DNA of 64,000 nt from positions 6,025,001 to 6,089,000 of the forward strand of contig NZ_CP150917.1 in the NCBI RefSeq assembly GCF_039908645.1, in the 5' to 3' direction. How positions within the stretch are numbered: the stretch's first letter is position 1; each line of letters begins with the position of its first letter. The translations under genes were made by a program, and so were the position numbers. This document shows positions 9,066-21,510 of the stretch, in pieces. The notes beneath the pieces are model-generated. The model was not told where the DNA came from. It did not search any database and saw only the letters and a program-made list of their open reading frames with translations. This DNA is from Pseudomonas helvetica. GTDB lineage: Bacteria; Pseudomonadota; Gammaproteobacteria; Pseudomonadales; Pseudomonadaceae.

Positions 9066-10424
9066 TCAGACGGCGAACAACAGGAACTCCCGCTCCCACG
9101 AACTGATCACGCGCTTGAAGTTTTCATGCTCGGCCCGCTTGACCGCGACGTAGCCAGTGATGAATTTTTTGCCCAGATATTTCTCGATGGTCGCGCTGTG
9201 TTCCATGCGTTCCAGTGCGTCTTCGATGGTCAGCGGCAGACGCAGATTGCGTCGCTCGTAACCCCGTCCAACCACGGGTGCGCTCGGGTTGATGCCTTCC
9301 ACCATGCCGATGTAACCGCAGAGCAGGCTCGCGGCGATCGCCAGGTAAGGGTTGGCATCGGCGCCCGGCAGGCGGTTTTCCACCCGACGGTTTTGCGGGC
9401 CTGCGTCCGGGACTCGCAGGCCGACGGTGCGGTTCTCTTCGCCCCACTCCACGTTCACCGGCGCCGAGGTATCCGGCAGGAAGCGGCGGAACGAGTTGAC
9501 GTTGGGCGCGAACAGCGGCAACAGCTCGGGGATGAACTTCTGCAAGCCACCGATGTGGTGCAGGAACAGCTCGCTCATCGTCCCGTCTTCATTCGAGAAG
9601 ACGTTCTTGCCGGTTTCGATGTCGATGATGCTCTGGTGCAAGTGCATCGCACTGCCCGGCTCGCCGGTCATCGGCTTGGCCATGAAGGTCGCGGCCACGT
9701 CGTGCTTGAGCGCCGCTTCGCGCATGGTGCGCTTGAACACCAGGATCTGATCGGCCAGGGACAGCGCGTCGCCGTGACGGAAGTTGATCTCCATCTGCGC
9801 CGTGCCGTCCTCGTGGATCAGCGTGTCCAGGTCCAGCTCTTGCAGTTCGCACCAGTCGTAGACGTCTTCGAACAGCGGGTCGAATTCGTTGGCCGCCTCA
9901 ATGGAGAAAGACTGACGACCGGTTTCCGGGCGACCGGAGCGGCCAATCGGCGGCTGCAACGGGAAGTCCGGGTCTTCGCAACGCTTGGTCAGGTAGAACT
10001 CCATCTCCGGCGCCACGATCGGCTGCCAGCCCTTGTCGGAATAGAGCTTCAGGACTTTCTTGAGCACGTTGCGCGGCGACAGCTCGATCGGGTTGCCCTG
10101 CTTGTCGTAGGTGTCGTGAATCACCTGCGCGGTCGGCTCGATGGCCCACGGCACGAGGAATACCGCGTTCGAGTCCGGGCGGCAGATCATGTCGATGTCG
10201 GCCGGGTCGAGCAGTTCGTAATAGATGTCATCTTCGACGTAGTCACCCGTCACTGTCTGTAACAGCACACTCTCGGGCAGGCGCATGCCTTTTTCGGCAA
10301 TGAACTTGTTGGTCGGCGAAATCTTGCCACGGGTGATCCCGGTCAGATCGCCAATCATGCATTCGACTTCTGTGATCTTGTGGTCTTTCAACCAATCGGT
10401 GAGCTGGTCGAGGTTGTTACTCAT
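9066..10424 (-). CDS. spuB: glutamine synthetase family, gamma-glutamylpolyamine synthetase
   Basis: This 452-residue glutamine-synthetase-like enzyme ligates glutamate to a polyamine using ATP. The catalytic domain shows EMEFYL, the glutamate-site block MHLHQSI, VNSFRRF and ENRTVGLRVP. The N-terminal beta-grasp domain begins near EVECMIGDLTGITRGK. It is shorter and more divergent than true GlnA and lacks the adenylylation-loop Tyr context. It is oriented with spuC downstream and a truncated spuA upstream, and is paralogous to the divergent spuI. Confidence 0.9.
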   Translation of the reverse strand: MSNNLDQLTDWLKDHKITEVECMIGDLTGITRGKISPTNKFIAEKGMRLPESVLLQTVTGDYVEDDIYYELLDPADIDMICRPDSNAVFLVPWAIEPTAQVIHDTYDKQGNPIELSPRNVLKKVLKLYSDKGWQPIVAPEMEFYLTKRCEDPDFPLQPPIGRSGRPETGRQSFSIEAANEFDPLFEDVYDWCELQELDLDTLIHEDGTAQMEINFRHGDALSLADQILVFKRTMREAALKHDVAATFMAKPMTGEPGSAMHLHQSIIDIETGKNVFSNEDGTMSELFLHHIGGLQKFIPELLPLFAPNVNSFRRFLPDTSAPVNVEWGEENRTVGLRVPDAGPQNRRVENRLPGADANPYLAIAASLLCGYIGMVEGINPSAPVVGRGYERRNLRLPLTIEDALERMEHSATIEKYLGKKFITGYVAVKRAEHENFKRVISSWEREFLLFAV

Positions 10425-12543: not shown

Positions 12544-12676
12544 TGTGGCGAGGGGGCTTGCCCCCGCTGGAGTGCGCAGCACTCCCAAACCCAGCGAACG
12601 CGGTGTGTCCGATGCCATGGGATCGCATGCTTTGGGGCTGCTTCGCAACCCAACGGGGGCAAGCCCCCTCGCCACA
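12544..12676. repeat. REPIN, GGGGGCTTGCCCCC-headed
   Basis: Opposed REP units starting TGTGGCGAGGGGGCTTGCCC and ending with the reverse complement flank a spacer with the same internal text (GGAGTGCGCAGCACTCC) as the REPIN at 1841. It lies between spuI and the TetR gene. Confidence 0.85.
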
Positions 12677-12734
12677 GGGTATGGATCATCTCTGCGCTCT
12701 GCGTACAATGCCCGCTGCCCTGCAGGAGACTTCA

Positions 12735-13422: not shown

Positions 13423-14376
13423 TCAAATAGCCCGGAGCAGTAACCTATCGATGGAATGATCTGATGATTTATTGATGATCAGGCTCGCCCTGTCACGCGT
13501 TGGCAGGATGTTCTCGACGAGGTTCTTCAAGTTGACTCGATCCCACGTATCGGACGCCATTGAAAGGGCCTCATGGTCCGACAGATCTCTGAACTTGTTG
13601 AAGTAAGACTCAGCCGACTGAAAAGCTGTGTTTTTCAAATAAACAAAACGTTCGAGATACCACTTCTTAATGGACTCTGTCGAAGCATCAATATAGATAG
13701 GAAAATCTATAAAGTCCAAAACGTTCAGTCCAAGGCATTTATCCCCCTGCAACACATTCAATCCTTCCAAGACAATAATATCGGGCAACTGCACTCGCTG
13801 CATTTCGTTGGGAAGTATGTCATACCGAACATGCGAATATATTGGAATCTGGACCGCTTTTCCCTCATTGCACACTGAGTGCAGAAAATCCAGGAACAGT
13901 GATTTATCGTACGATTCCGGAAAACCTTTTCTGTGCAAAAGATTTTTCTCTTCGAGCATCGCCAAGGGAAAGAGAAATGAGTCAGTTGTCACCAATTGCA
14001 CATTGGGTGAACCAGGCCAAGATGACAAAAGTGCCGACAGCACCCTGGCGAAGCTGCTCTTCCCTACCGCAACACTACCGGATATACCGATAACATAGGG
14101 CGGCTTGAACAGTGGTACCCCGAGAAAAGCGGCTTGTACCTGACTAAATGACTGCGTTGCCGAAGAGTGCAGATTCAGCAGGCGCGATAGAGGAAGCAAT
14201 ATATTCATTACCTCCTCCGGAGTTATGGGCTGGGTAGGGCTTACCAGTGCCTTCATCTCCGAAGACGAAAGACTCATCGCCACCTTGGCCCGAAAGGAAG
14301 ACCACTGCTCGCGACTAAACTCCCAATACCCGCGATTGGCTTGCGAAAGCACTATTGCATCCTGCTCTGTAGTCAT
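13423..14376 (-). CDS. type I pantothenate kinase (CoaA-like) in the island
   Basis: This 317-residue protein is collinear with E. coli CoaA (316 residues). It keeps the P-loop GSVAVGKS (residues 100-107), Asp132 in TTDSF, YSH (180-182), the LPDIIVLEGLNVLQG strand, Tyr240 in WYLERF and Asn289 in NILPTRDRAS, i.e. the ATP- and pantothenate-binding residues known for CoaA. It should phosphorylate pantothenate or a close analogue. Pseudomonas normally uses the unrelated type III kinase CoaX, so this copy is likely pathway-specific. The ATG is preceded by AGGACGG. It is the last of three leftward genes after two 2-oxoglutarate oxygenases and is A+T-richer than the flanks. Confidence 0.88.
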   Translation of the reverse strand: MTTEQDAIVLSQANRGYWEFSREQWSSFRAKVAMSLSSSEMKALVSPTQPITPEEVMNILLPLSRLLNLHSSATQSFSQVQAAFLGVPLFKPPYVIGISGSVAVGKSSFARVLSALLSSWPGSPNVQLVTTDSFLFPLAMLEEKNLLHRKGFPESYDKSLFLDFLHSVCNEGKAVQIPIYSHVRYDILPNEMQRVQLPDIIVLEGLNVLQGDKCLGLNVLDFIDFPIYIDASTESIKKWYLERFVYLKNTAFQSAESYFNKFRDLSDHEALSMASDTWDRVNLKNLVENILPTRDRASLIINKSSDHSIDRLLLRAI

Positions 14377-14415
14377 ATCCGTCCTGTATATGCCTTACCA
14401 AAAGCAGGGAACATA

Positions 14416-15375
14416 TCAGATTTGATCGTCATATCCAAATCGATACTTGGCAAAGTCCTCAGGAAATGCTCGATGCTTGTGAGGATTTATCCATACGCGA
14501 TGCAATAATCTGTTCGTCGCTTCATGAGGATTACTCACAAAAGGCGTACGAGCGTGCAAAGCTGCGTTATTGTCGTAAAAAACAATATCGCCGGGAGCCA
14601 TTTTAAAAGAAATATAATTTCTCGGATCTTCACATAACCGGGTAAATAGCGCGAGCGCGTCGAGTTCAGCTTTACTCGGCTTGAGGCTCATTTTTTCCAG
14701 ACCCGGCAAAATATAATCAGTTAAGTAAAATCGACAACTTAGCTTTGTATCCTGGTAGTAAAATACCGAATTGCGATAGGCAGGAGGTAATCCAGGTGCT
14801 TCTTCACCACGGCTATCGTAGAGAAAGCCATGATAGAAAAGCGACAAGAACTCCTTATGCTCTGCCAGGATCAGATTATGGATATTACCAGCACTGACCA
14901 CCAGCGAGTCACCACCCTCTTGTGAGTTATGAATGCACAGAAGACCCGTTATATCTGATGAATCACTATGAAAGTTTAGCCCTTGACTTGTGTTATACGC
15001 TCGCACATTCAAATCAGACAACGTGCCCGACATTTTATTAGAAACAGTAACGACTTTATCGCCATTGTGGTTTTGTGAAACAAGCAGCCCAATTTGACTG
15101 GATAACGAGAGGTAAAAGCGTAACAGCTGTGCTTCGGAATAGTCTTCAGGCGACAACCCCTTCAGCACGGCGAACCCCTGCCCACTCTCGCAAATATTGG
15201 TAATACGTGCTGCAAGGTGCCTCAGTGCGCCGTGGTTCTCGAGCAATGCATCCGAGGATCCCAGTAGCCCCTCCAACTCACCTTCAAAAAAGTCACTCAA
15301 CTTAAGAAATGACTCTTTCGCTTCATAGGTTTTTGCTGTCCAGCAATGACGACCTTCAACTTTATCCAGCAGCAT
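14416..15375 (-). CDS. TauD/TfdA-type 2-oxoglutarate Fe(II) oxygenase
   Basis: This 319-residue enzyme is of the TauD/clavaminate-synthase-like superfamily. The iron triad is visible: His136-x-Asp138 in NFHSDSSD and His274 in AALHARTPF. Arg293 in LLHRVWIN is placed to bind 2-oxoglutarate. Such enzymes hydroxylate, desaturate or cyclise small acids and amino-acid derivatives. The ATG at 15375 is preferred because GAGGGAGC lies about 7 bases upstream; an in-frame ATG at 15399 lacks a well-spaced site. It lies between the other oxygenase and the pantothenate-kinase-like gene, co-oriented with short gaps. The substrate is unknown. Confidence 0.85.
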   Translation of the reverse strand: MLLDKVEGRHCWTAKTYEAKESFLKLSDFFEGELEGLLGSSDALLENHGALRHLAARITNICESGQGFAVLKGLSPEDYSEAQLLRFYLSLSSQIGLLVSQNHNGDKVVTVSNKMSGTLSDLNVRAYNTSQGLNFHSDSSDITGLLCIHNSQEGGDSLVVSAGNIHNLILAEHKEFLSLFYHGFLYDSRGEEAPGLPPAYRNSVFYYQDTKLSCRFYLTDYILPGLEKMSLKPSKAELDALALFTRLCEDPRNYISFKMAPGDIVFYDNNAALHARTPFVSNPHEATNRLLHRVWINPHKHRAFPEDFAKYRFGYDDQI

Positions 15376-15443
15376 ACACAAAGCTCCCTCAGCATCCATA
15401 ACTCGGGGTGATCATTCTTATAAACAGTACATGAACGATGGCA

Positions 15444-16358
15444 TTAACCTATCGAATCAACATTTAACCCAACCGAAGGTACCTGAATACGCATGGGTAA
15501 AACCTCATGTGAATCAAGCGAATCAAAAGGATTGGTGTTATGTAGCAGCGCTGTAGGGCGGCGGGTGAAAAAAATCAACATATCGCGAGTTGCCTCTTGA
15601 CTTTCGTCCGTAGCATAGACCGGTGAAAGACTATGCTTTTTTTCGCTGTCGACGATTAATAAGGTATCAAGAAAGTGTCTATGTTGAACTTTACCCAATA
15701 CATAGTGTTCGCGAGCATTGTCCCAACTCACACCATTTTTTTCCCTCGCATCATGAATGAAGGTAACGGCACTGTCCGACGACATATTCTTCGTCCCTAA
15801 CAACGTGGTCATTGTATGTTCCACGCCATCACTATGAACGCCCTCCAGTGCCGGCTCACCCAATAGTTCCGGCGTAGTAAGTGTCCTGAGATTGAACACG
15901 GTACAGACATTGCGATGCCGATCAGGCAGCAAATTTTTTCTGGGATGGATATAAACCTTATTGATGATCATCGATTTGATACAGAGCAAGGCCTGAAACG
16001 CCGTATTCAATTGCAAATCGTCGTTGATCTCCTCGAAGGACCTTAGCTGATTGGAGTCGAAACGGACAAAATCCTCATCGTATGAAAGGACAAAGGGCTG
16101 GTACTCAAGTCTGGATATACTGGATTTTTTATAGTCGAACAAAAACCGACCATTTCGCGATTTTCTGAAGGGCAGCGTTGGATCGGACTGCAGACTCTCA
16201 CTGACGCGCTGCAACGACGTTATGTCAGAGTCCGTCGCACCAAGACAACGAAGATAACCCAGTAACTTCTTACCCTCAATAAAAATGAATCGATGCTGTA
16301 TATACCGAGCTCTCAATTCCGATAGTTCAGTACAGACCCAAGCCGGCAAATTATTCAT
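15444..16358 (-). CDS. 2-oxoglutarate Fe(II) dioxygenase, PF10014 / IDO-like
   Basis: This 304-residue protein resembles the 2OG-Fe_Oxy_2 family (PF10014), which includes L-isoleucine dioxygenase and other free-aliphatic-amino-acid hydroxylases. Hallmarks are EGVHSDGVEHTMTTLL (iron ligands His175 and Asp177), His242 in KKHSLSPV and the terminal motif RDMLIFFTRRP (residues 258-268). Family members are usually ~230-260 residues; this one has a longer N-terminal part. The ATG at 16358 (AGGA nine bases upstream) is preferred over the adjacent GTG at 16361. It is the first leftward gene after the lux box, about 100 bases downstream of it. A likely role is hydroxylation of an amino or branched acid precursor. 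Confidence 0.8.
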   Translation of the reverse strand: MNNLPAWVCTELSELRARYIQHRFIFIEGKKLLGYLRCLGATDSDITSLQRVSESLQSDPTLPFRKSRNGRFLFDYKKSSISRLEYQPFVLSYDEDFVRFDSNQLRSFEEINDDLQLNTAFQALLCIKSMIINKVYIHPRKNLLPDRHRNVCTVFNLRTLTTPELLGEPALEGVHSDGVEHTMTTLLGTKNMSSDSAVTFIHDAREKNGVSWDNAREHYVLGKVQHRHFLDTLLIVDSEKKHSLSPVYATDESQEATRDMLIFFTRRPTALLHNTNPFDSLDSHEVLPMRIQVPSVGLNVDSIG

Positions 16359-16672
16359 CACTGTTCATCCTGAACGTAAGTTCCAATAATCGCCAAGCCG
16401 GGTACGGCCTTAGCGAAACATGACTAGCCAGATAGTAAGCATGACAAAAAGCATTAGTCACCTGTACCTTGAGACAGGTTGTCATTACCGGCATATGTGT
16501 GACATAAATTCGTCAATATCTCGATACAAGAAAGCGCTCTACTAAGGCTAGACCAAATGCGTCTGGGATGACGGTCTAACAACTCCACTTCCTTATAAAT
16601 GTTTTCTGAAGAGATGGAACACGCCCACAAGGCCACGCGAACACCAACTGAATATATATTGGGGACCTGTAC
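16359..16672. promoter_or_regulatory. divergent promoter region of the accessory island
   Basis: This 314-base A+T-rich gap separates the leftward oxygenase-oxygenase-kinase unit from the rightward panD-like unit. It holds a lux box (16460-16479). Candidate -10 elements lie 22-23 bases beyond the box on either side: TACTAT reading leftward and CATAAA reading rightward, close to the spacing expected for a box centred near -42. The remaining ~160 bases before the panD-like start form an A+T-rich leader with no hairpin I could support. Confidence 0.65.
16460..16479. promoter_or_regulatory. lux box (LuxR-AHL operator)
   Basis: ACCTGTACCTTGAGACAGGT is a 20-bp element with perfect 6-bp arms (ACCTGT/ACAGGT) and an 8-base spacer. 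It has the same arms and length as the classical Vibrio fischeri luxI lux box. It lies in the divergent promoter region, 194 bases before the panD-like start and about 100 bases before the oxygenase start. A LuxR-family gene with an intact AHL-binding pocket ends the rightward unit. Confidence 0.85.
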
Positions 16673-17044
16673 ATGCGCACTGTTCTGCACGCCAAACTTC
16701 ATAACGCCATTGTGACAGAGGCGAATCTTGCTTACGTCGGTTCCATTACCATTGATCAGGAACTTCTGGACAAAGTCGATATTTGGCCTGGTGAAAGGGT
16801 CATGGTCGTTTCAAACACTTCGGGGGCAAGACTGGAAACGTACGTAATTTCAGGGGAGCGAGGTAAAAAAGACATCTGCGTAAACGGCGCGGCAGCACAC
16901 CTTATTGGTGCAGGCGAGCAAGTCATCATTATGGCTTTCCGAAATAGCAACAAACAACTTGAACCAAAAGTCGCGATTCTGGATAAAACGAACGTTATTA
17001 TCCAGATGCTTCATGAAAAGCCCAACATGGTAGTTCCTTTGTAA
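16673..17044 (+). CDS. PanD-like pyruvoyl aspartate 1-decarboxylase
   Basis: This 123-residue protein is collinear with PanD, which makes beta-alanine from L-aspartate. The self-cleavage site Gly23-Ser24 (YVGSITID), which generates the pyruvoyl group, is intact. So are Lys8, Arg53, Tyr57 and the VNGAAAHL turn (70-77). The start is ATG with GGGGA nine bases upstream. A housekeeping panD is expected elsewhere, so this is probably a pathway-dedicated copy that supplies beta-alanine or decarboxylates a related amino acid. It is the first gene of the rightward unit, followed at 41 bases by a HAD hydrolase gene. Confidence 0.88.
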
Positions 17045-17085
17045 TAGCACATGGGCTTTACTAGTTTTTGGAGTTCATTCACACA

Positions 17086-17805
17086 ATGAAACTATCTAAT
17101 TATCGCGCTATCAGCTTTGACTGTTTCGGAACTTTGGTCGACTGGGAGTCGGGCATTATCAATGCTTTGCGAAATGCCTGTGACGACAAACTCCAGCAGG
17201 TTTCCGATGCGCAACTTATAGCGTATTTCCTGAGACAGGAATCGACTATTCTTGCCAACACACCGGACATACCTTATCCGTCCGCACTGAGCAAAACGTA
17301 CGCGAGCATCCTGGCCAAACTCGACAGACCTTGCGACAAGAGCAAAGCTATACACTTTGGGAACTCCATCAGTGAATGGCCATTATTCAGCGACACGATC
17401 AAAGCGTTGACCCATCTACAGCGTCATCACAAATTGGTTATTTTATCCAATATCGATGAAGCTTCAATCGAAGTGACCAGAGCTCGACTGCTGTGCAACT
17501 TCTACCGTACCTATACGGCTCAGGCCATCGGCTCATTCAAACCCGCCCTGAACAACTTTAACTACCTAGTCCGCCACCTCGCAGACCTCGGCATTAAAAA
17601 ACACGAACTGCTGCACGTGAGCGTCAGCAGATTTCACGATATTGAACCAGCAGCCGCGACAGGTATTGACACAGCATGGATCAACCGTGCCGACACCTTG
17701 AACGGGACACTTTCCATTCAACCCGAGTTCTCCCCCAGCATTGAACCACTCTATAAATTTGGTTCACTCGCAGAACTGGTCAGCGCACACAAAGCGGGAC
17801 ATTAA
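17086..17805 (+). CDS. HAD superfamily hydrolase (haloacid dehalogenase-like)
   Basis: This 239-residue protein has the HAD core. Motif I is ISFDCFGTLVDW with nucleophile Asp12, motif II is LVILSNID, motif III Lys is in GSFKPAL and motif IV is FHDIEPAAATGIDTAWINR. The text is closest to type II 2-haloacid dehalogenases and small phosphatases of subfamily I; substrate is set by the cap domain and is unknown. The ATG at 17086 is chosen (GGAG about 12 bases upstream) over an in-frame TTG at 17068. In context it could dephosphorylate a pathway intermediate, opposing or complementing the pantothenate-kinase-like enzyme. Confidence 0.82.
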   Translation: MKLSNYRAISFDCFGTLVDWESGIINALRNACDDKLQQVSDAQLIAYFLRQESTILANTPDIPYPSALSKTYASILAKLDRPCDKSKAIHFGNSISEWPLFSDTIKALTHLQRHHKLVILSNIDEASIEVTRARLLCNFYRTYTAQAIGSFKPALNNFNYLVRHLADLGIKKHELLHVSVSRFHDIEPAAATGIDTAWINRADTLNGTLSIQPEFSPSIEPLYKFGSLAELVSAHKAGH

Positions 17806-17838
17806 CACTCGCCTTTCATATTTATAAGAGGAACGATA

Positions 17839-18714
17839 ATGGACGTCATCCACACAATTAGCGAATTGAGAACCCACCTGAAGCGTGAGCGAGATAATGG
17901 CAAAAGCATCAGCTTCATTTCAACAATGGGGGCATTGCACGCAGGTCATATCAGCCTCGTGGAACATGGAAAAAGCATCAGTGATATCACTGTCGCCGGC
18001 ATTTTTCTTAATCCATCTCACTTTGCAGAAGGTGAAGACTATGATAAATATCCACGCACTCTGGAGACCGACTGCTCTAAACTGGAAGCTGTAAGATGCG
18101 ACATTGTATTCGCGCCTTCAGTCAAAGAGATATACCCACTCGGACTGGACTACCAGGCAACCGTCGATGTGCCATTCTTGAGTGAGCAATTTTGCGGTAA
18201 AACACGGCCACATTTTTTCAGTGCAATAGCGACTGTTGTCACAAAGCTGCTTAATATAGTGCAACCTGACTTCTCCTTGTTTGGTGAAAAAGACTTTCAG
18301 CAACTTGCTGTTTGCCGTCGACTGGTCGAGACATTAAACATTCCAACCCAAGTCATCGGGGTCCCAACCATCAGAGATGATAGCGGTTTAGCCCTGAGCT
18401 CACGAAATGGCTATTTGAATGATGCCGAACGGGAACAAGCTTCTCACCTATACCAGGTTTTGCTCAATGCCAAACGAAAAATCCTAGAACGCTCTTCAAC
18501 ATATTCCACAATCGAAAGTGAATCCATAGAGGCATTGACCCGGTTTGGCTTCAAACCGGACTATTTCAGTTTCGCCGATGCGCTCACACTTGAGCCGGCG
18601 TCTGACGCTACAACCGATATTGTAATCCTCTGCGCCGCTTATCTCGACTCCGTACGCTTGATAGACAATATCGTCGTCTCAAAAGAAAAGACCGGTGCAT
18701 CTACCGCTATCTAA
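17839..18714 (+). CDS. PanC-like pantothenate synthetase with altered acid site
   Basis: This 291-residue ATP-dependent ligase is collinear with PanC, which joins pantoate and beta-alanine through a pantoyl adenylate. The HxGH motif (His34, His37 in GALHAGH), FGEKDFQQL and the LALSSRNGYL nucleotide loop are intact, so adenylation chemistry should be kept. Residue 61 is His in NPSHF where E. coli PanC has Gln61 (NPMQF), a residue that contacts pantoate in PanC structures. The family RPGHF motif reads RPHFF. These changes suggest a modified acid substrate. It lies 33 bases after the HAD gene and upstream of a GlyRS-like gene, with AGAGGAACG before the ATG. Confidence 0.88.
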   Translation: MDVIHTISELRTHLKRERDNGKSISFISTMGALHAGHISLVEHGKSISDITVAGIFLNPSHFAEGEDYDKYPRTLETDCSKLEAVRCDIVFAPSVKEIYPLGLDYQATVDVPFLSEQFCGKTRPHFFSAIATVVTKLLNIVQPDFSLFGEKDFQQLAVCRRLVETLNIPTQVIGVPTIRDDSGLALSSRNGYLNDAEREQASHLYQVLLNAKRKILERSSTYSTIESESIEALTRFGFKPDYFSFADALTLEPASDATTDIVILCAAYLDSVRLIDNIVVSKEKTGASTAI

Positions 18715-18726
18715 CCTTCACTAAAA

Positions 18727-18748
18727 TCAGGTTTCCTGGCCTGACTTT
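18727..18748 (+). other. weak hairpin between panC-like and glyRS-like genes
   Basis: A short inverted repeat (TCAGG/CCTGA around an 8-base loop) followed by a pyrimidine-rich stretch lies in the 73-base gap. It could be a weak attenuator; the stem is only about five pairs. Confidence 0.3.
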
Positions 18749-18787
18749 CTATTTCTGAAAACACAACAAGTCCAGTAAGGCTCACCT

Positions 18788-20044
18788 ATGAATAGGCTCC
18801 CTCTAGAAGACGTTCTTGCAATGTGCAAACAGATCGGTATTTTCAGCTCTTCGTGTTCAATATACGGAGGAATGCCTGGCATTTTCGACTATGGGCCATT
18901 GGGTGCAGAAATAAAAATCCACCTAAGAAAGGCCTGGTGGCAAGCAATGGTCTATGACAGGGATGATGTCTACGGTATTGAAGCAGCACTTCTAACCTCG
19001 CCCTTATTGCATGAGCACTCCGGCTTTCTTGGCGCTAACTATGAAGAGTTCGGTGTATTCGAGACCCGCATCAAAGATGAAAACAATAACTTATCGCCCT
19101 GTCACCTGCGAGTGACGACTGCTCAACATAGCTTCGCCAATTTCGATAATGTAGTGGAGTGGACCCATCCATCCCTTCCTTTTGGTATTGCTCAGATAGG
19201 TAAAGCCTTTCGAAACGAACAGCAAGTCACTGACTTCCCCGTACGCATGAGGGAGTTCGAACAGATGGAACTGCAGTATTTTGTTCCCACCGAAAACACC
19301 CAAGAGTGGCACGAATTCTGGTTAAAACAACGACTGGACTGGTGGGAACAACAGGGGATCAACTTGCAGAACTTGATCGTGGATGACGTAGTGGCCGACG
19401 AACTGGCTCACTACTCTAGTAAAACCTATGATATTCATTATAAACAACCAAACGGGGACATCTTCGAAATTGAAGGTATCGCCGATCGTGGTGACTTTGA
19501 TTGTGGTTCCCATAGCGGGTCTCAAGACAAACTACACCTCAGTTCTTCCGTCCTACCGAACAACATGTCCACCGCACTCATGGCAATAACACAACCAGGC
19601 ACTGAGACCTTAATCGCACCGTGCGCCATTGAACCTGCAGCAGGCGTTGACCGGGGGTTGATGGCAGTACTCTTCGAGTCGTTTGTTCGTGTCGATTCAT
19701 CCGATGGTACAAGCCGTGTTGTTTTGCGTATCAAACCCCATTTAGCGCCTGTCAAGGCATGCCTACACATTCCAAATTCAAATGCGATCTTATCAATAGA
19801 AAGCGCCTCTATCATAAAGCACAGGTTACAACGTCTCGCTGCCGGAAAAATCGTTATAGAGATTGGTGGCGACAAACAAAAAGTAACAAAATATCATGAC
19901 GAAGTCGGCACTCCTTTTTTAATAACCTTGGAAGACAGCATGCTGAACGATAACATCGTTATCGTTCGAGAGAGAGATACCGGGGTAACCGAGCATATGC
20001 CCATCGAACAATTTTACATACGTTTTGAGTCGATCTATTCATAA
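18788..20044 (+). CDS. class II glycyl-tRNA synthetase-like protein, altered pocket
   Basis: This 418-residue protein is of the alpha2 (eukaryotic/archaeal/Gram-positive) GlyRS type. Motif 1 region is IYGGMPGIFDYGPLGAEIK (25-43), motif 2 is FGIAQIGKAFRNE (132-144) with REFEQMELQYF, and motif 3 is IEPAAGVDRGLMAVL (281-295). A C-terminal anticodon-binding-like domain contains DEVGTPFLITL and VIVRERDTG. Two glycine-contact positions differ from true GlyRS: RPETAQG reads RVTTAQH (Thr110 for Glu) and EPSAGVDR reads EPAAGVDR (Ala284 for Ser). The insertion normally found between motifs 1 and 2 is missing, explaining the short length. ATP chemistry looks intact. It may activate another small amino acid, perhaps beta-alanine, or act as a resistance copy; the former fits better. 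Pseudomonas housekeeping GlyRS is the unrelated alpha2beta2 GlyQS. Confidence 0.85.
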   Translation: MNRLPLEDVLAMCKQIGIFSSSCSIYGGMPGIFDYGPLGAEIKIHLRKAWWQAMVYDRDDVYGIEAALLTSPLLHEHSGFLGANYEEFGVFETRIKDENNNLSPCHLRVTTAQHSFANFDNVVEWTHPSLPFGIAQIGKAFRNEQQVTDFPVRMREFEQMELQYFVPTENTQEWHEFWLKQRLDWWEQQGINLQNLIVDDVVADELAHYSSKTYDIHYKQPNGDIFEIEGIADRGDFDCGSHSGSQDKLHLSSSVLPNNMSTALMAITQPGTETLIAPCAIEPAAGVDRGLMAVLFESFVRVDSSDGTSRVVLRIKPHLAPVKACLHIPNSNAILSIESASIIKHRLQRLAAGKIVIEIGGDKQKVTKYHDEVGTPFLITLEDSMLNDNIVIVRERDTGVTEHMPIEQFYIRFESIYS

Positions 20045-20084
20045 TGCACCGCACGCACGCTTTCAGTCCTAAAGCGCCCCACTC

Positions 20085-20115
20085 AAGTTAACGCCACACT
20101 TCACAGCGTTAACTT
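20085..20115 (+). other. 10-bp-arm hairpin after the glyRS-like gene
   Basis: AAGTTAACGC and its exact reverse complement flank an 11-base loop, 40 bases after the stop. Only a weak pyrimidine tract follows, so it may be a poor terminator that separates the biosynthetic genes from the last two genes, or a protein-binding palindrome. Confidence 0.5.
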
Positions 20116-20145
20116 TCACCTTCCACTCAGGCGCACCTTACGACC

Positions 20146-20646
20146 ATGAAGTCATTCCCAGAACTCAGTGCTGACCAGCACATTCAACATGACGAACTAT
20201 TAATTCGCATAAGAAACCAACTGTACTTGAACAAAGTAAAAAACCATAAACTCGTACTCCTGTACTTCTCTATTCTCGCAGTGACTTTTTTCGGTAGCAA
20301 CCTTTCACAGCCATCAACAAAAATATCCATCGCCTATCAAATATTCCTTTTCCTATCCGTCGTTTTTTTCTGCCTCTCGACCACTCTTTTCCTTCGAGAA
20401 AGTCGCTTAGAAGAAAAAGCATACCGCGACTTATCCCTTTATTTATCAACCTTACCCGGCCCGACAACCCTGCTATCCTATCAATACATTGACAATTTCA
20501 GGACTCATATACTTTACATTGAATACAATGATAAGAACCAATGCAATTGGTGTTACAGCATCAAATCATCTGCAGAGGCTGGCCTGGAGATTATCGATTC
20601 AAGAAAGCCGCGCCCTCATCAAAACTCAACAAAACCGGTGTCATGA
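20146..20646 (+). CDS. hypothetical protein with two transmembrane segments
   Basis: I do not recognise this 166-residue protein. It has a soluble charged N terminus (residues 1-35), two hydrophobic helices (about LVLLYFSILAVTFFG, and IFLFLSVVFFCLSTTLFL), and a polar C-terminal domain of about 80 residues with Cys133 and Cys136 in QCNWCY. The layout resembles small SLATT-like or immunity-type membrane proteins with a helical hairpin, but this is only a shape resemblance. The coding DNA is among the most A+T-rich of the window. No strong ribosome binding site precedes the ATG. Its place between the GlyRS-like and LuxR genes suggests a role in immunity, sensing or export for the pathway. Confidence 0.6.
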   Translation: MKSFPELSADQHIQHDELLIRIRNQLYLNKVKNHKLVLLYFSILAVTFFGSNLSQPSTKISIAYQIFLFLSVVFFCLSTTLFLRESRLEEKAYRDLSLYLSTLPGPTTLLSYQYIDNFRTHILYIEYNDKNQCNWCYSIKSSAEAGLEIIDSRKPRPHQNSTKPVS

Positions 20647-20781
20647 CTGCTCCTCCATGGCAACGCTCACCAAGCGTATTTTCCAACATACATCGCCCCT
20701 TCAAACAAGTTAATCCCCAGCCCTCATATAACAGCCGGGTTATCCACCTTGAATTAGTTACTCACCACAAGTTGCCTCTAT

Positions 20782-21510
20782 ATGGATATAGACAATAAGC
20801 CACACAATAACAACCTACCGAAGCTGATCGCGCGCCTCAAATTGAGTCTTGAGTTAGAGATCCGAAAAAAAGGCTTCAGACGATTCACTTATTTTATCGC
20901 AAGGAAAGCAAATCTTCGAAACCCATTCCTCATGAGCAATTACCCTGAACACTGGATAGAAGAATACATGCTCAGAAATCATCATCTCACTGATCCTGTC
21001 ATCCAGTTCGGACTTCGCTCGATTGCACCATTTTCTTGGGCTGAATGCAGAATCAAAGCAGATAACTCCGGCTTCAACTTTTTCGAAAAGCCGAGGAGCT
21101 ATCGTCTTACAGATGGATATTGCTTTACGCTTCATGATGCCAACGGCTGCTTTTCCCTACTTAGTGTCTGCGACAGGTTCGACCCTGCGCTATTTCATAT
21201 TCTCGAGCAACAAAAATCCGAGCTCCAAATGCTGCTCATTCGAGCCCATCAACTTATGAACATTAGCCCACGAGTACTTGACTTCATATTTCCAGAGAGT
21301 TCAACCAAACCACTGACTCAACGAGAACACGAAATATTGAAATGGGCGTGCATCGGAAAGACATACTCCGAAATTTCACTAATAACCAGTATTAGCGTAC
21401 GCACAGTAAAATTTCACATGAGCAATATTGTAGACAAGCTTGATGTTACCAATGCCAAGCATGCTATATCCAAAGCTCAGCAAGATGGTCTGTGCTTACA
21501 AATGCGTTAG
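20782..21510 (+). CDS. LuxR family quorum-sensing regulator (AHL-binding type)
   Basis: This 242-residue regulator has an N-terminal autoinducer domain and a C-terminal LuxR HTH (LTQREHEILKWACIGKTYSE, then VRTVKFHMSNIVDKL). The pocket positions that contact AHL in TraR/LuxR appear preserved: Tyr54, Trp58, Tyr62, Asp71-Pro72, Trp86 and Gly112. No luxI-type synthase lies in the window, so it is a solo or pairs with a synthase elsewhere. A lux box in the divergent promoter of the same island makes that promoter the obvious target. The start ATG lacks a strong Shine-Dalgarno; the coding DNA is A+T-rich like the rest of the island. Confidence 0.88.
   Translation: MDIDNKPHNNNLPKLIARLKLSLELEIRKKGFRRFTYFIARKANLRNPFLMSNYPEHWIEEYMLRNHHLTDPVIQFGLRSIAPFSWAECRIKADNSGFNFFEKPRSYRLTDGYCFTLHDANGCFSLLSVCDRFDPALFHILEQQKSELQMLLIRAHQLMNISPRVLDFIFPESSTKPLTQREHEILKWACIGKTYSEISLITSISVRTVKFHMSNIVDKLDVTNAKHAISKAQQDGLCLQMR

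What the first reader, a model, noticed from the sequence alone, without database searches (positions are those of the whole stretch)
13423..21510. Previously undescribed quorum-controlled cluster built from duplicated coenzyme A genes, oxygenases and a GlyRS-like enzyme
Nine adjacent genes form two divergent units: two 2-oxoglutarate oxygenases and a CoaA-type kinase leftward; PanD-like, HAD, PanC-like, GlyRS-like, two-TM protein and LuxR rightward. PanD, PanC and pantothenate kinase are consecutive chemical steps around beta-alanine and pantothenate, here copied into an accessory region with tailoring oxygenases and an aminoacyl-activating enzyme. The simplest reading is a dedicated pathway for a pantothenate- or beta-alanine-containing metabolite, perhaps a CoA antimetabolite; the fungal pantothenate analogue CJ-15,801 is a chemical precedent for such a class only. 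I know of no characterised cluster with this set.
Basis: partly seen in the sequence, partly recalled or inferred. Interest (0 to 1): 0.95.

Follow-up and report, generated by a model that had tools for sequence, protein, structure and literature searches.

The report
Valine-to-vitamin-B5-mimic gene island
A Pseudomonas genome carries a rare nine-gene island, with a perfect quorum-sensing-type box in its control region, that is predicted to turn the amino acid valine into a mimic of vitamin B5, likely to disturb coenzyme A in competing microbes.

Summary
They form a low-GC block (45.6% against 59.8%) at a site that is empty in 9 of 11 fetched relatives' loci, and the whole set is kept in order in Pseudomonas sp. 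TH31.

The PF10014 oxygenase is a close homologue of TqaL, the fungal enzyme that makes an aziridine from L-valine; its Fe ligands and five TqaL pocket residues are kept. The HAD protein is closest to L-azetidine-2-carboxylate hydrolase; in the fungal pathway a HAD enzyme (TqaF) opens TqaL's aziridine to 3-amino-2R-hydroxy-3-methylbutanoate, which is pantoate with CH2OH replaced by NH2.

The cluster PanC has lost a substrate-site Gln that is present in 111 of 111 next-nearest PanCs. The GlyRS-like protein has lost two recalled glycine-site residues but keeps its ATP motifs. A perfect lux box lies in the divergent promoter and is kept in TH31; no LuxI was found.

Best reading (chemistry inferred): valine-derived amino-pantoate is joined to PanD-made beta-alanine, giving a pantothenate antimetabolite. 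Main evidence against: two related contigs seem to lack a cluster-type PanC.

The parts
13423..14376 (-). Type I pantothenate kinase (CoaA type); step or bypass unknown
   Evidence: TIGR00554 374.8 bits, cut-off 235; aligned to Mtb PanK; only type I PanK in the genome, which also has CoaX
14416..15399 (-). TauD-family Fe/2OG oxygenase, closest solved relative FrbJ
   Evidence: PF02668 E 9.7e-32; FrbJ 5eqn E 1.1e-52
15444..16361 (-). TqaL-like Fe/2OG oxygenase (predicted aziridine synthase on L-Val or L-Ile); probable start ATG 16358
   Evidence: 7EEH TqaL E 4.4e-101; H176/D178/H243; five pocket residues kept
16460..16479 (.). lux box ACCTGTACCTTGAGACAGGT in the divergent promoter region
   Evidence: only zero-mismatch match in the window; zero mismatches also in TH31
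16673..17044 (+). PanD, aspartate 1-decarboxylase (beta-alanine supply)
   Evidence: TIGR00223 130.9 bits, cut-off 106; G-S cleavage site kept
17068..17805 (+). HAD hydrolase, predicted aziridine-ring hydrolase; probable start ATG 17086
   Evidence: 3SMV / L-azetidine-2-carboxylate hydrolase E 2.3e-49; HAD motifs
17839..18714 (+). PanC-like ligase with altered acid site (Q61H, P28S, G125H, G129A)
   Evidence: TIGR00018 305.5 bits; residue comparison
18788..20044 (+). GlyRS-like adenylating enzyme with changed glycine site and missing insert
20146..20646 (+). Small protein with two hydrophobic stretches (seen by eye), function unknown
   Evidence: no family over cut-off; 58% identical in TH31
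20782..21510 (+). LuxR-type regulator with autoinducer-binding domain, no partner LuxI found
   Evidence: PF03472 E 1.5e-24, PF00196 E 3.4e-15; no PF00765 in the genome

Best explanation
The nine genes at 13423-21510, which share a divergent control region with a perfect lux box, likely make a pantothenate (vitamin B5) mimic from L-valine and L-aspartate. Predicted steps: (1) the TqaL-like oxygenase converts L-Val to 3,3-dimethylaziridine-2-carboxylate; (2) the HAD protein opens the ring to (2R)-3-amino-2-hydroxy-3-methylbutanoate, which is D-pantoate with CH2OH replaced by NH2; (3) PanD makes beta-alanine from aspartate; (4) the altered PanC adenylates the amino-pantoate and joins it to beta-alanine, giving an analogue (C8H16N2O4, [M+H]+ 205.118) without the 4'-OH that pantothenate kinases phosphorylate; (5) the FrbJ-like TauD enzyme oxidises the N-acyl-beta-alanine arm; (6) the GlyRS-like enzyme, still adenylating but no longer glycine-specific, activates a carboxylate for a final amide or ester; (7) the type I PanK either phosphorylates an intermediate or bypasses the host's type III kinase; (8) the LuxR protein with an AHL switches on both units through the lux box. 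Shown: gene families, residue changes, lux box, synteny, insertion site. Inferred: every chemical step, the regulation and the role as an antimetabolite.
For: TqaL-like: best solved structure is TqaL (7EEH, E 4.4e-101). H176/D178/H243 are kept. Window F90, F109, F156, I263, F265 match TqaL-nc F168, F187, F234, I343, F345, given as valine-pocket residues (F345 governing aziridination over hydroxylation) in PMC11880133 (passages read); mapped through a Neurospora homologue (P0221) at offset +3, the only offset from -30 to +30 that gives all five. HAD: best solved structure is L-azetidine-2-carboxylate hydrolase (3SMV, E 2.3e-49), motifs kept; [quoted passage not shown] PanC: position 61 (E. coli numbering; equal to Mtb Gln72 by recall, a residue listed for substrate binding in PMC5772511, passages read) is H in 9 of 9 distinct cluster-type PanCs and Q in 111 of 111 next-nearest homologues; P28S, G125H, G129A are in all 9 too; the host's other PanC keeps Q. 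GlyRS-like: T110 and A284 in 8 of 8 against E and S in 111 of 111; motif 2 and 3 arginines kept in all; stretch of 2 residues where the 111 have 35-43. TauD: best solved structure FrbJ (E 1.1e-52). Regulation: the only zero-mismatch ACCTG-N10-CAGGT site in 64 kb lies in the divergent region and is kept in TH31. Linkage: full cluster in FW300-N2E3 (99.65% identical DNA, so nearly the same strain) and TH31; equal longest-contig lengths suggest GlyRS, TqaL and PanC together on two further contigs (19327, 7780) and GlyRS with PanC on a third (8869).
Against: Contigs of 15323 and 56895 bases (the latter labelled P. syringae) seem to hold the GlyRS-like and TqaL-like proteins (P0007/P0126, P0008/P0128), but no PanC from a contig of those lengths is among the best 120 PanC hits, so PanC may not belong to the core. 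None of the other 44 TqaL-like bacterial loci shows the HAD, PanC, PanD, PanK, TauD or GlyRS-like gene at tblastn E 1e-4 (13 of the 44 are cut short by contig ends, lengths), so the bacterial TqaL-HAD pairing rests on this cluster plus the fungal precedent. The five TqaL pocket residues are near-invariant in all 120 listed homologues, so they show that the pocket is kept, not what is special here. TqaF's own sequence was not compared. The PanK substrate residues look intact (residue roles recalled), which fits poorly with a product lacking the hydroxyl to be phosphorylated unless the kinase is a bypass. HAD enzymes of this kind are also known as detoxifiers (PMC8016842, passages read). No exporter is recognisable among the nine. 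No chemistry was done.
Confidence: 0.4

Rival explanations
1. PanC, PanD and PanK (and the HAD protein) are self-protection genes: the product is an aziridine amino acid or derivative that hits CoA biosynthesis, and the cluster carries resistant stand-ins for the targets plus a ring-opening detoxifier.
For: The host has its own PanC, PanD and CoaX and the kinase is of another type, as resistant substitutes often are; PanK substrate residues look intact (roles recalled); AzhA, a relative of the Pseudomonas azetidine hydrolase, detoxifies a cyclic amino acid in Aspergillus (PMC8016842, passages read); the PanC changes could as well block an inhibitor.
Against: Three successive steps would all need protecting; the GlyRS-like protein does not fit, since the host uses the other GlyRS type and the glycine site is changed.
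Confidence: 0.22
2. The cluster makes ordinary pantothenate (PanD and PanC keep their normal reactions) and couples it, or a phosphorylated form, to an aziridine amino acid activated by the GlyRS-like enzyme, giving a pantothenamide-like hybrid.
For: All catalytic families for normal pantothenate and its phosphorylation are present and over their curated cut-offs; an adenylating enzyme with a changed amino-acid site is present; a type I kinase would be needed if type III kinases do not take pantothenamides (recalled).
Against: Q61H and three neighbouring changes in 9 of 9 cluster-type PanCs suggest another acid; the HAD protein would then have no biosynthetic role.
Confidence: 0.2
3. The GlyRS-like enzyme and the TqaL-like enzyme are the core of a pathway to an aziridine (or hydroxyvaline) conjugate, possibly tRNA-dependent, and the pantothenate genes are a lineage-specific addition, for instance supplying beta-alanine.
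For: Two contigs seem to have the core pair without a recognisable cluster-type PanC; the anticodon-binding domain is kept (PF03129).
Against: PanC and PanD are kept at 87-88% in TH31, as well as the core pair; the stretch of 35-43 residues lost by 8 of 8 GlyRS-like proteins is, by recall, near the tRNA acceptor in GlyRS.
Confidence: 0.15

Closest known systems
TqaL-TqaF-TqaM pathway of fungi (2-aminoisobutyrate for tryptoquialanine; PMC11880133, PMC10764440, passages read)
   Same: TqaL homologue plus a HAD-type hydrolase, both expected to act on L-valine-derived aziridine
   Different: No TqaM or NRPS gene among the nine; instead PanD, PanC, PanK, TauD and GlyRS-like genes; bacterial and LuxR-linked
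CJ-15,801, fungal pantothenate analogue (recalled)
   Same: Product class proposed: a pantothenate antimetabolite
   Different: CJ-15,801 is changed in the beta-alanine half; here the acid half would be changed. No gene cluster for it was found in the one search made
Housekeeping panCD and CoaA/CoaX of CoA biosynthesis
   Same: Same enzyme families
   Different: Cluster PanC has a changed acid site; paralogues only 46-49% identical to the host's
FrbJ of FR-900098 biosynthesis (function recalled)
   Same: Closest solved relative of the TauD protein; its substrate, an N-acyl-aminopropyl phosphonate by recall, resembles an N-acyl-beta-alanine
   Different: No phosphonate gene recognised among the nine
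L-azetidine-2-carboxylate hydrolase of Pseudomonas and AzhA of Aspergillus
   Same: Same HAD subfamily (PMC8016842, passages read)
   Different: Those serve detoxification or assimilation of a plant toxin; here the gene lies beside an aziridine-synthase homologue

Membership tests
TqaL-type aziridine synthase | Sequence family and Fe(II) H-x-D...H triad | tested here: met
   7EEH E 4.4e-101; H176, D178 in 121 of 121 rows, H243 in 120 of 121 with one gap
TqaL-type aziridine synthase | Pocket residues F168, F187, F234, I343, F345 | tested here: met
   F90, F109, F156, I263, F265; near-invariant in the family, so not discriminating
TqaL-type aziridine synthase | Aziridination of L-Val or L-Ile | not testable with these tools
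   needs enzyme assay
TqaF/azetidine-carboxylate hydrolase-type HAD | HAD motifs and closest relationship to a cyclic-amine hydrolase | tested here: met
TqaF/azetidine-carboxylate hydrolase-type HAD | Direct similarity to TqaF | not tested
   TqaF sequence was not at hand
Pantothenate synthetase (PanC) using pantoate | Both pantoate-site glutamines (E. coli Q61 and Q155; roles partly recalled) | tested here: not met
   Q61 is H in 9 of 9 cluster-type PanCs; Q155 kept
Glycyl-tRNA synthetase | Glycine-site residues E188, E239, S361 (Thermus numbering, roles recalled) | tested here: not met
   E188T and S361A in 8 of 8, E239 kept
Glycyl-tRNA synthetase | Class II ATP motifs | tested here: met
   motif 2 and motif 3 arginines kept in 8 of 8
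Aspartate 1-decarboxylase (PanD) | Gly-Ser self-cleavage site and curated cut-off | tested here: met
Type I pantothenate kinase | Curated equivalog cut-off | tested here: met
   TIGR00554 374.8 against 235
AHL-responsive LuxR | Conserved W, Y, D, P, W, G of the AHL site (recalled TraR W57 Y61 D70 P71 W85 G113) | tested here: met
   W58, Y62, D71, P72, W86, G112 (positions)
Classical LuxI/LuxR pair | A LuxI synthase in the genome | tested here: not met
   no PF00765 in G000; 31 of 149 genomes of the genus ring
Pantothenate antimetabolite cluster | Product that inhibits CoA biosynthesis and is reversed by pantothenate | not testable with these tools
   needs metabolite and growth assays

The most novel reading that the evidence does not exclude
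A bacterium has joined a fungal-type aziridine pathway to rewired vitamin B5 enzymes: valine is made into an amine isostere of pantoate by aziridination and ring opening, and an altered PanC joins it to beta-alanine, giving a natural pantothenate antimetabolite made without NRPS or PKS and finished by a repurposed glycyl-tRNA synthetase.
Probability: 0.35. Interest if true: 0.9.

Novelty: new variant of a known kind. Interest (0 to 1): 0.74.

Why it matters
CoA biosynthesis is a long-pursued antimicrobial target with few known natural inhibitors (recalled). A compact bacterial pathway with a concrete structural prediction would offer a new antimetabolite scaffold, a bacterial aziridine amino-acid route, a pantothenate synthetase with a switched acid substrate, and an aminoacyl-tRNA synthetase turned biosynthetic. 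A pool of barcoded transposon mutants exists for P. fluorescens FW300-N2E3 (PMC9007349, passages read), whose genome carries the cluster, so it is quickly testable.

Tried and rejected
Rejected: the GlyRS-like protein as an ordinary or resistant GlyRS. Rejected: chance neighbours. Rejected: close relatives on plasmids; the 16 plasmid records matched are all under 60% identical.

Led nowhere: an AlphaFold model of the GlyRS-like protein from a 12-row alignment was poor (mean pLDDT 58.3) and was not searched. Four paper searches for such a cluster or for FrbJ returned no paper and one for CJ-15,801 gene clusters returned one unrelated paper; the library is open-licence papers only. The glycine-site residues could not be confirmed from a paper (listing seen only). 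A second genus search from another centre drew, by its handles, much the same genomes: 9 of 398 matched, one strongly (57% identical), eight weakly (E 2e-4 to 9e-4). PF00765 was first silent in the controls too; the repeat over 149 genomes of the genus rang in 31, not in G000. The cluster-type PanCs were grouped by the gap in identity (56% and more against 52% and less), not by proven linkage; of ten rows, P0241 is the window's own and was not counted twice, and P0248 is partial. P0009, an intermediate GlyRS-like protein (45%), was left out of both GlyRS groups.
Full report
Observation. The nine ORFs are present as described, in two units that diverge from a 311-bp intergenic region. The window lies in a 6.44 Mb Pseudomonas chromosome; the named genome P. 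fluorescens FW300-N2E3 has the same cluster at 99.65% DNA identity. The block is low in GC (45.6% against 59.8%). In 9 of 11 relatives' loci fetched, the flanking TetR gene and the ssu genes lie 22-160 bp apart; in one they lie 1365 bp apart, and one locus has no TetR match. So this is an inserted accessory block, likely acquired horizontally.

Rarity. The GlyRS-like gene was found in 1 of 398 genomes of the genus, the window's own. A scan of one genome per species (84,980 species) for TqaL-like proteins gave 46 loci (two peptide patterns, so a lower bound). Only 2 of the 46, FW300-N2E3 and TH31, carry the rest of the set; in TH31 all nine genes are in the same order at 58-91% protein identity and at the same chromosomal site.

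The oxygenase is a TqaL homologue. The best solved structure for the PF10014 protein is TqaL (7EEH, E 4.4e-101; the next hit is E 3e-4). The Fe ligands are kept. The five residues that PMC11880133 (passages read) names for the valine pocket of TqaL-nc, F168, F187, F234, I343 and F345, map to F90, F109, F156, I263 and F265 here. I mapped them through a Neurospora homologue, P0221, whose numbering is shifted by three; no other shift from -30 to +30 gives F, F, F, I, F. These residues are near-invariant among the 120 listed homologues, so the test shows that the pocket is kept and no more. According to the same review, F345L and F345A make hydroxyvaline the main product; F is kept here.

The HAD protein. 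Its best solved relative is L-azetidine-2-carboxylate hydrolase (3SMV, E 2.3e-49). [quoted passage not shown] That acid carries the 2R hydroxyl and the 3,3-dimethyl carbon of D-pantoate, with NH2 in place of CH2OH (my own comparison of structures). This supplies a reason for PanC and PanD to be in the cluster: PanC joins pantoate to beta-alanine, and PanD makes beta-alanine.

PanC. Among the 120 best homologues, I compared the window protein and P0242-P0249 (9 distinct cluster-type sequences, one partial; P0241 is the window's own) with the other 111. Position 61 is H in 9 of 9 and Q in 111 of 111. P28S, G125H and G129A are in 9 of 9; H126 is replaced in 9 of 9 (F in 8, L in 1); N32A in 8 of 9. 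Q61 corresponds by recall to Mtb Gln72, which PMC5772511 (passages read) lists among substrate-binding residues. The host's other PanC keeps Q, and the TH31 cluster PanC has H. This fits a switched acid substrate; it would also fit resistance to an inhibitor.

GlyRS-like protein. Eight sequences form a family at 60-100% identity to the window protein. Against 111 next-nearest homologues, the family has T for E188 and A for S361 (Thermus numbering; their role in binding glycine is recalled and could not be confirmed in a paper), keeps E239 and the motif 2 and 3 arginines, and has 2 residues where the others have 35-43. The anticodon-binding domain is still recognisable. The host's own GlyRS is of the other type. 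I read it as an adenylating enzyme with another substrate.

Other enzymes. TauD is closest to FrbJ (E 1.1e-52), which by recall hydroxylates an N-acyl-aminopropyl phosphonate, a shape like N-acyl-beta-alanine; no paper on FrbJ was found. PanD keeps its Gly-Ser cleavage site. PanK keeps the aligned residues that I recall as pantothenate contacts in Mtb PanK; the host's kinase is CoaX and there is no second type I PanK.

Regulation. ACCTGTACCTTGAGACAGGT at 16460-16479 is the only match without mismatch to ACCTG-N10-CAGGT in the window; 50 matches with up to 2 mismatches were found against 25.3 expected, so weaker matches mean little. In TH31 the region is diverged but the box is kept without mismatch. 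The LuxR protein has the W, Y, D, P, W, G recalled for the AHL site. No LuxI was found in the genome (where the controls were silent too); a repeat rang in 31 of 149 genomes of the genus but not in this one. PF00765 covers LuxI-type synthases only.

Against the reading. Two contigs, of 15323 bases and of 56895 bases (labelled P. syringae), seem from equal contig lengths to carry the GlyRS-like and TqaL-like genes, yet no PanC from contigs of those lengths is among the best 120 PanC hits. None of the other 44 TqaL-like loci shows the HAD gene or another enzyme gene of the cluster (13 of the 44 are cut short by contig ends). An intact PanK fits poorly with a product that has no 4'-OH, unless the kinase is a bypass. 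Every chemical step is inferred.

Verdict. A real, rare, inserted, lux-box-bearing biosynthetic island. I put 0.4 on the valine-to-pantothenate-mimic scheme as a whole; the aziridine-forming step alone is, in my judgement, more likely than not. The scheme is a new combination of known enzyme families, so a new variant of a known kind.

Noticed in passing
L013-L017, L019, L021, L032, L041-L043, L046, L049, L050 (TqaL-like match, mostly near 10001): 14 of 46 bacterial TqaL-like loci (L013, L014, L015, L016, L017, L019, L021, L032, L041, L042, L043, L046, L049, L050) have an EamA-type transporter gene within 1.5 kb, as found with an HMM built from four such neighbours. This suggests stand-alone aziridine or hydroxy amino acid makers with an exporter; the Serratia locus L013 also has a branched-chain amino acid transporter beside it.
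   Followed up: partly
P0131 (Glaciimonas sp. GG7): A TqaL-like protein with an added carrier-protein domain (PF00550), which suggests that some relatives act on or next to a tethered amino acid.
   Followed up: no
P0007/P0126 and P0008/P0128: Contigs that seem to hold GlyRS-like and TqaL-like proteins without a recognisable cluster-type PanC; the contigs could not be read here.
   Followed up: partly
P0009: A more distant GlyRS-like protein (45%) that also lacks the insert and has A at both changed glycine-site positions, possibly another biosynthetic GlyRS family.
   Followed up: no
L052:10001-10150: A 50-residue stretch 82% identical to the TqaL-like protein on a Burkholderia sp. contig, with no other cluster gene matched nearby at E 0.1; it looks like a remnant.
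   Followed up: partly
12555-12680: A REP-like palindromic repeat (gggggcttgccccc and its complement) between the glutamine synthetase and TetR genes, seen by eye.
   Followed up: no
20146-20646: The least conserved gene of the set (58% in TH31), with no family over cut-off; it could be a membrane or immunity protein.
   Followed up: no
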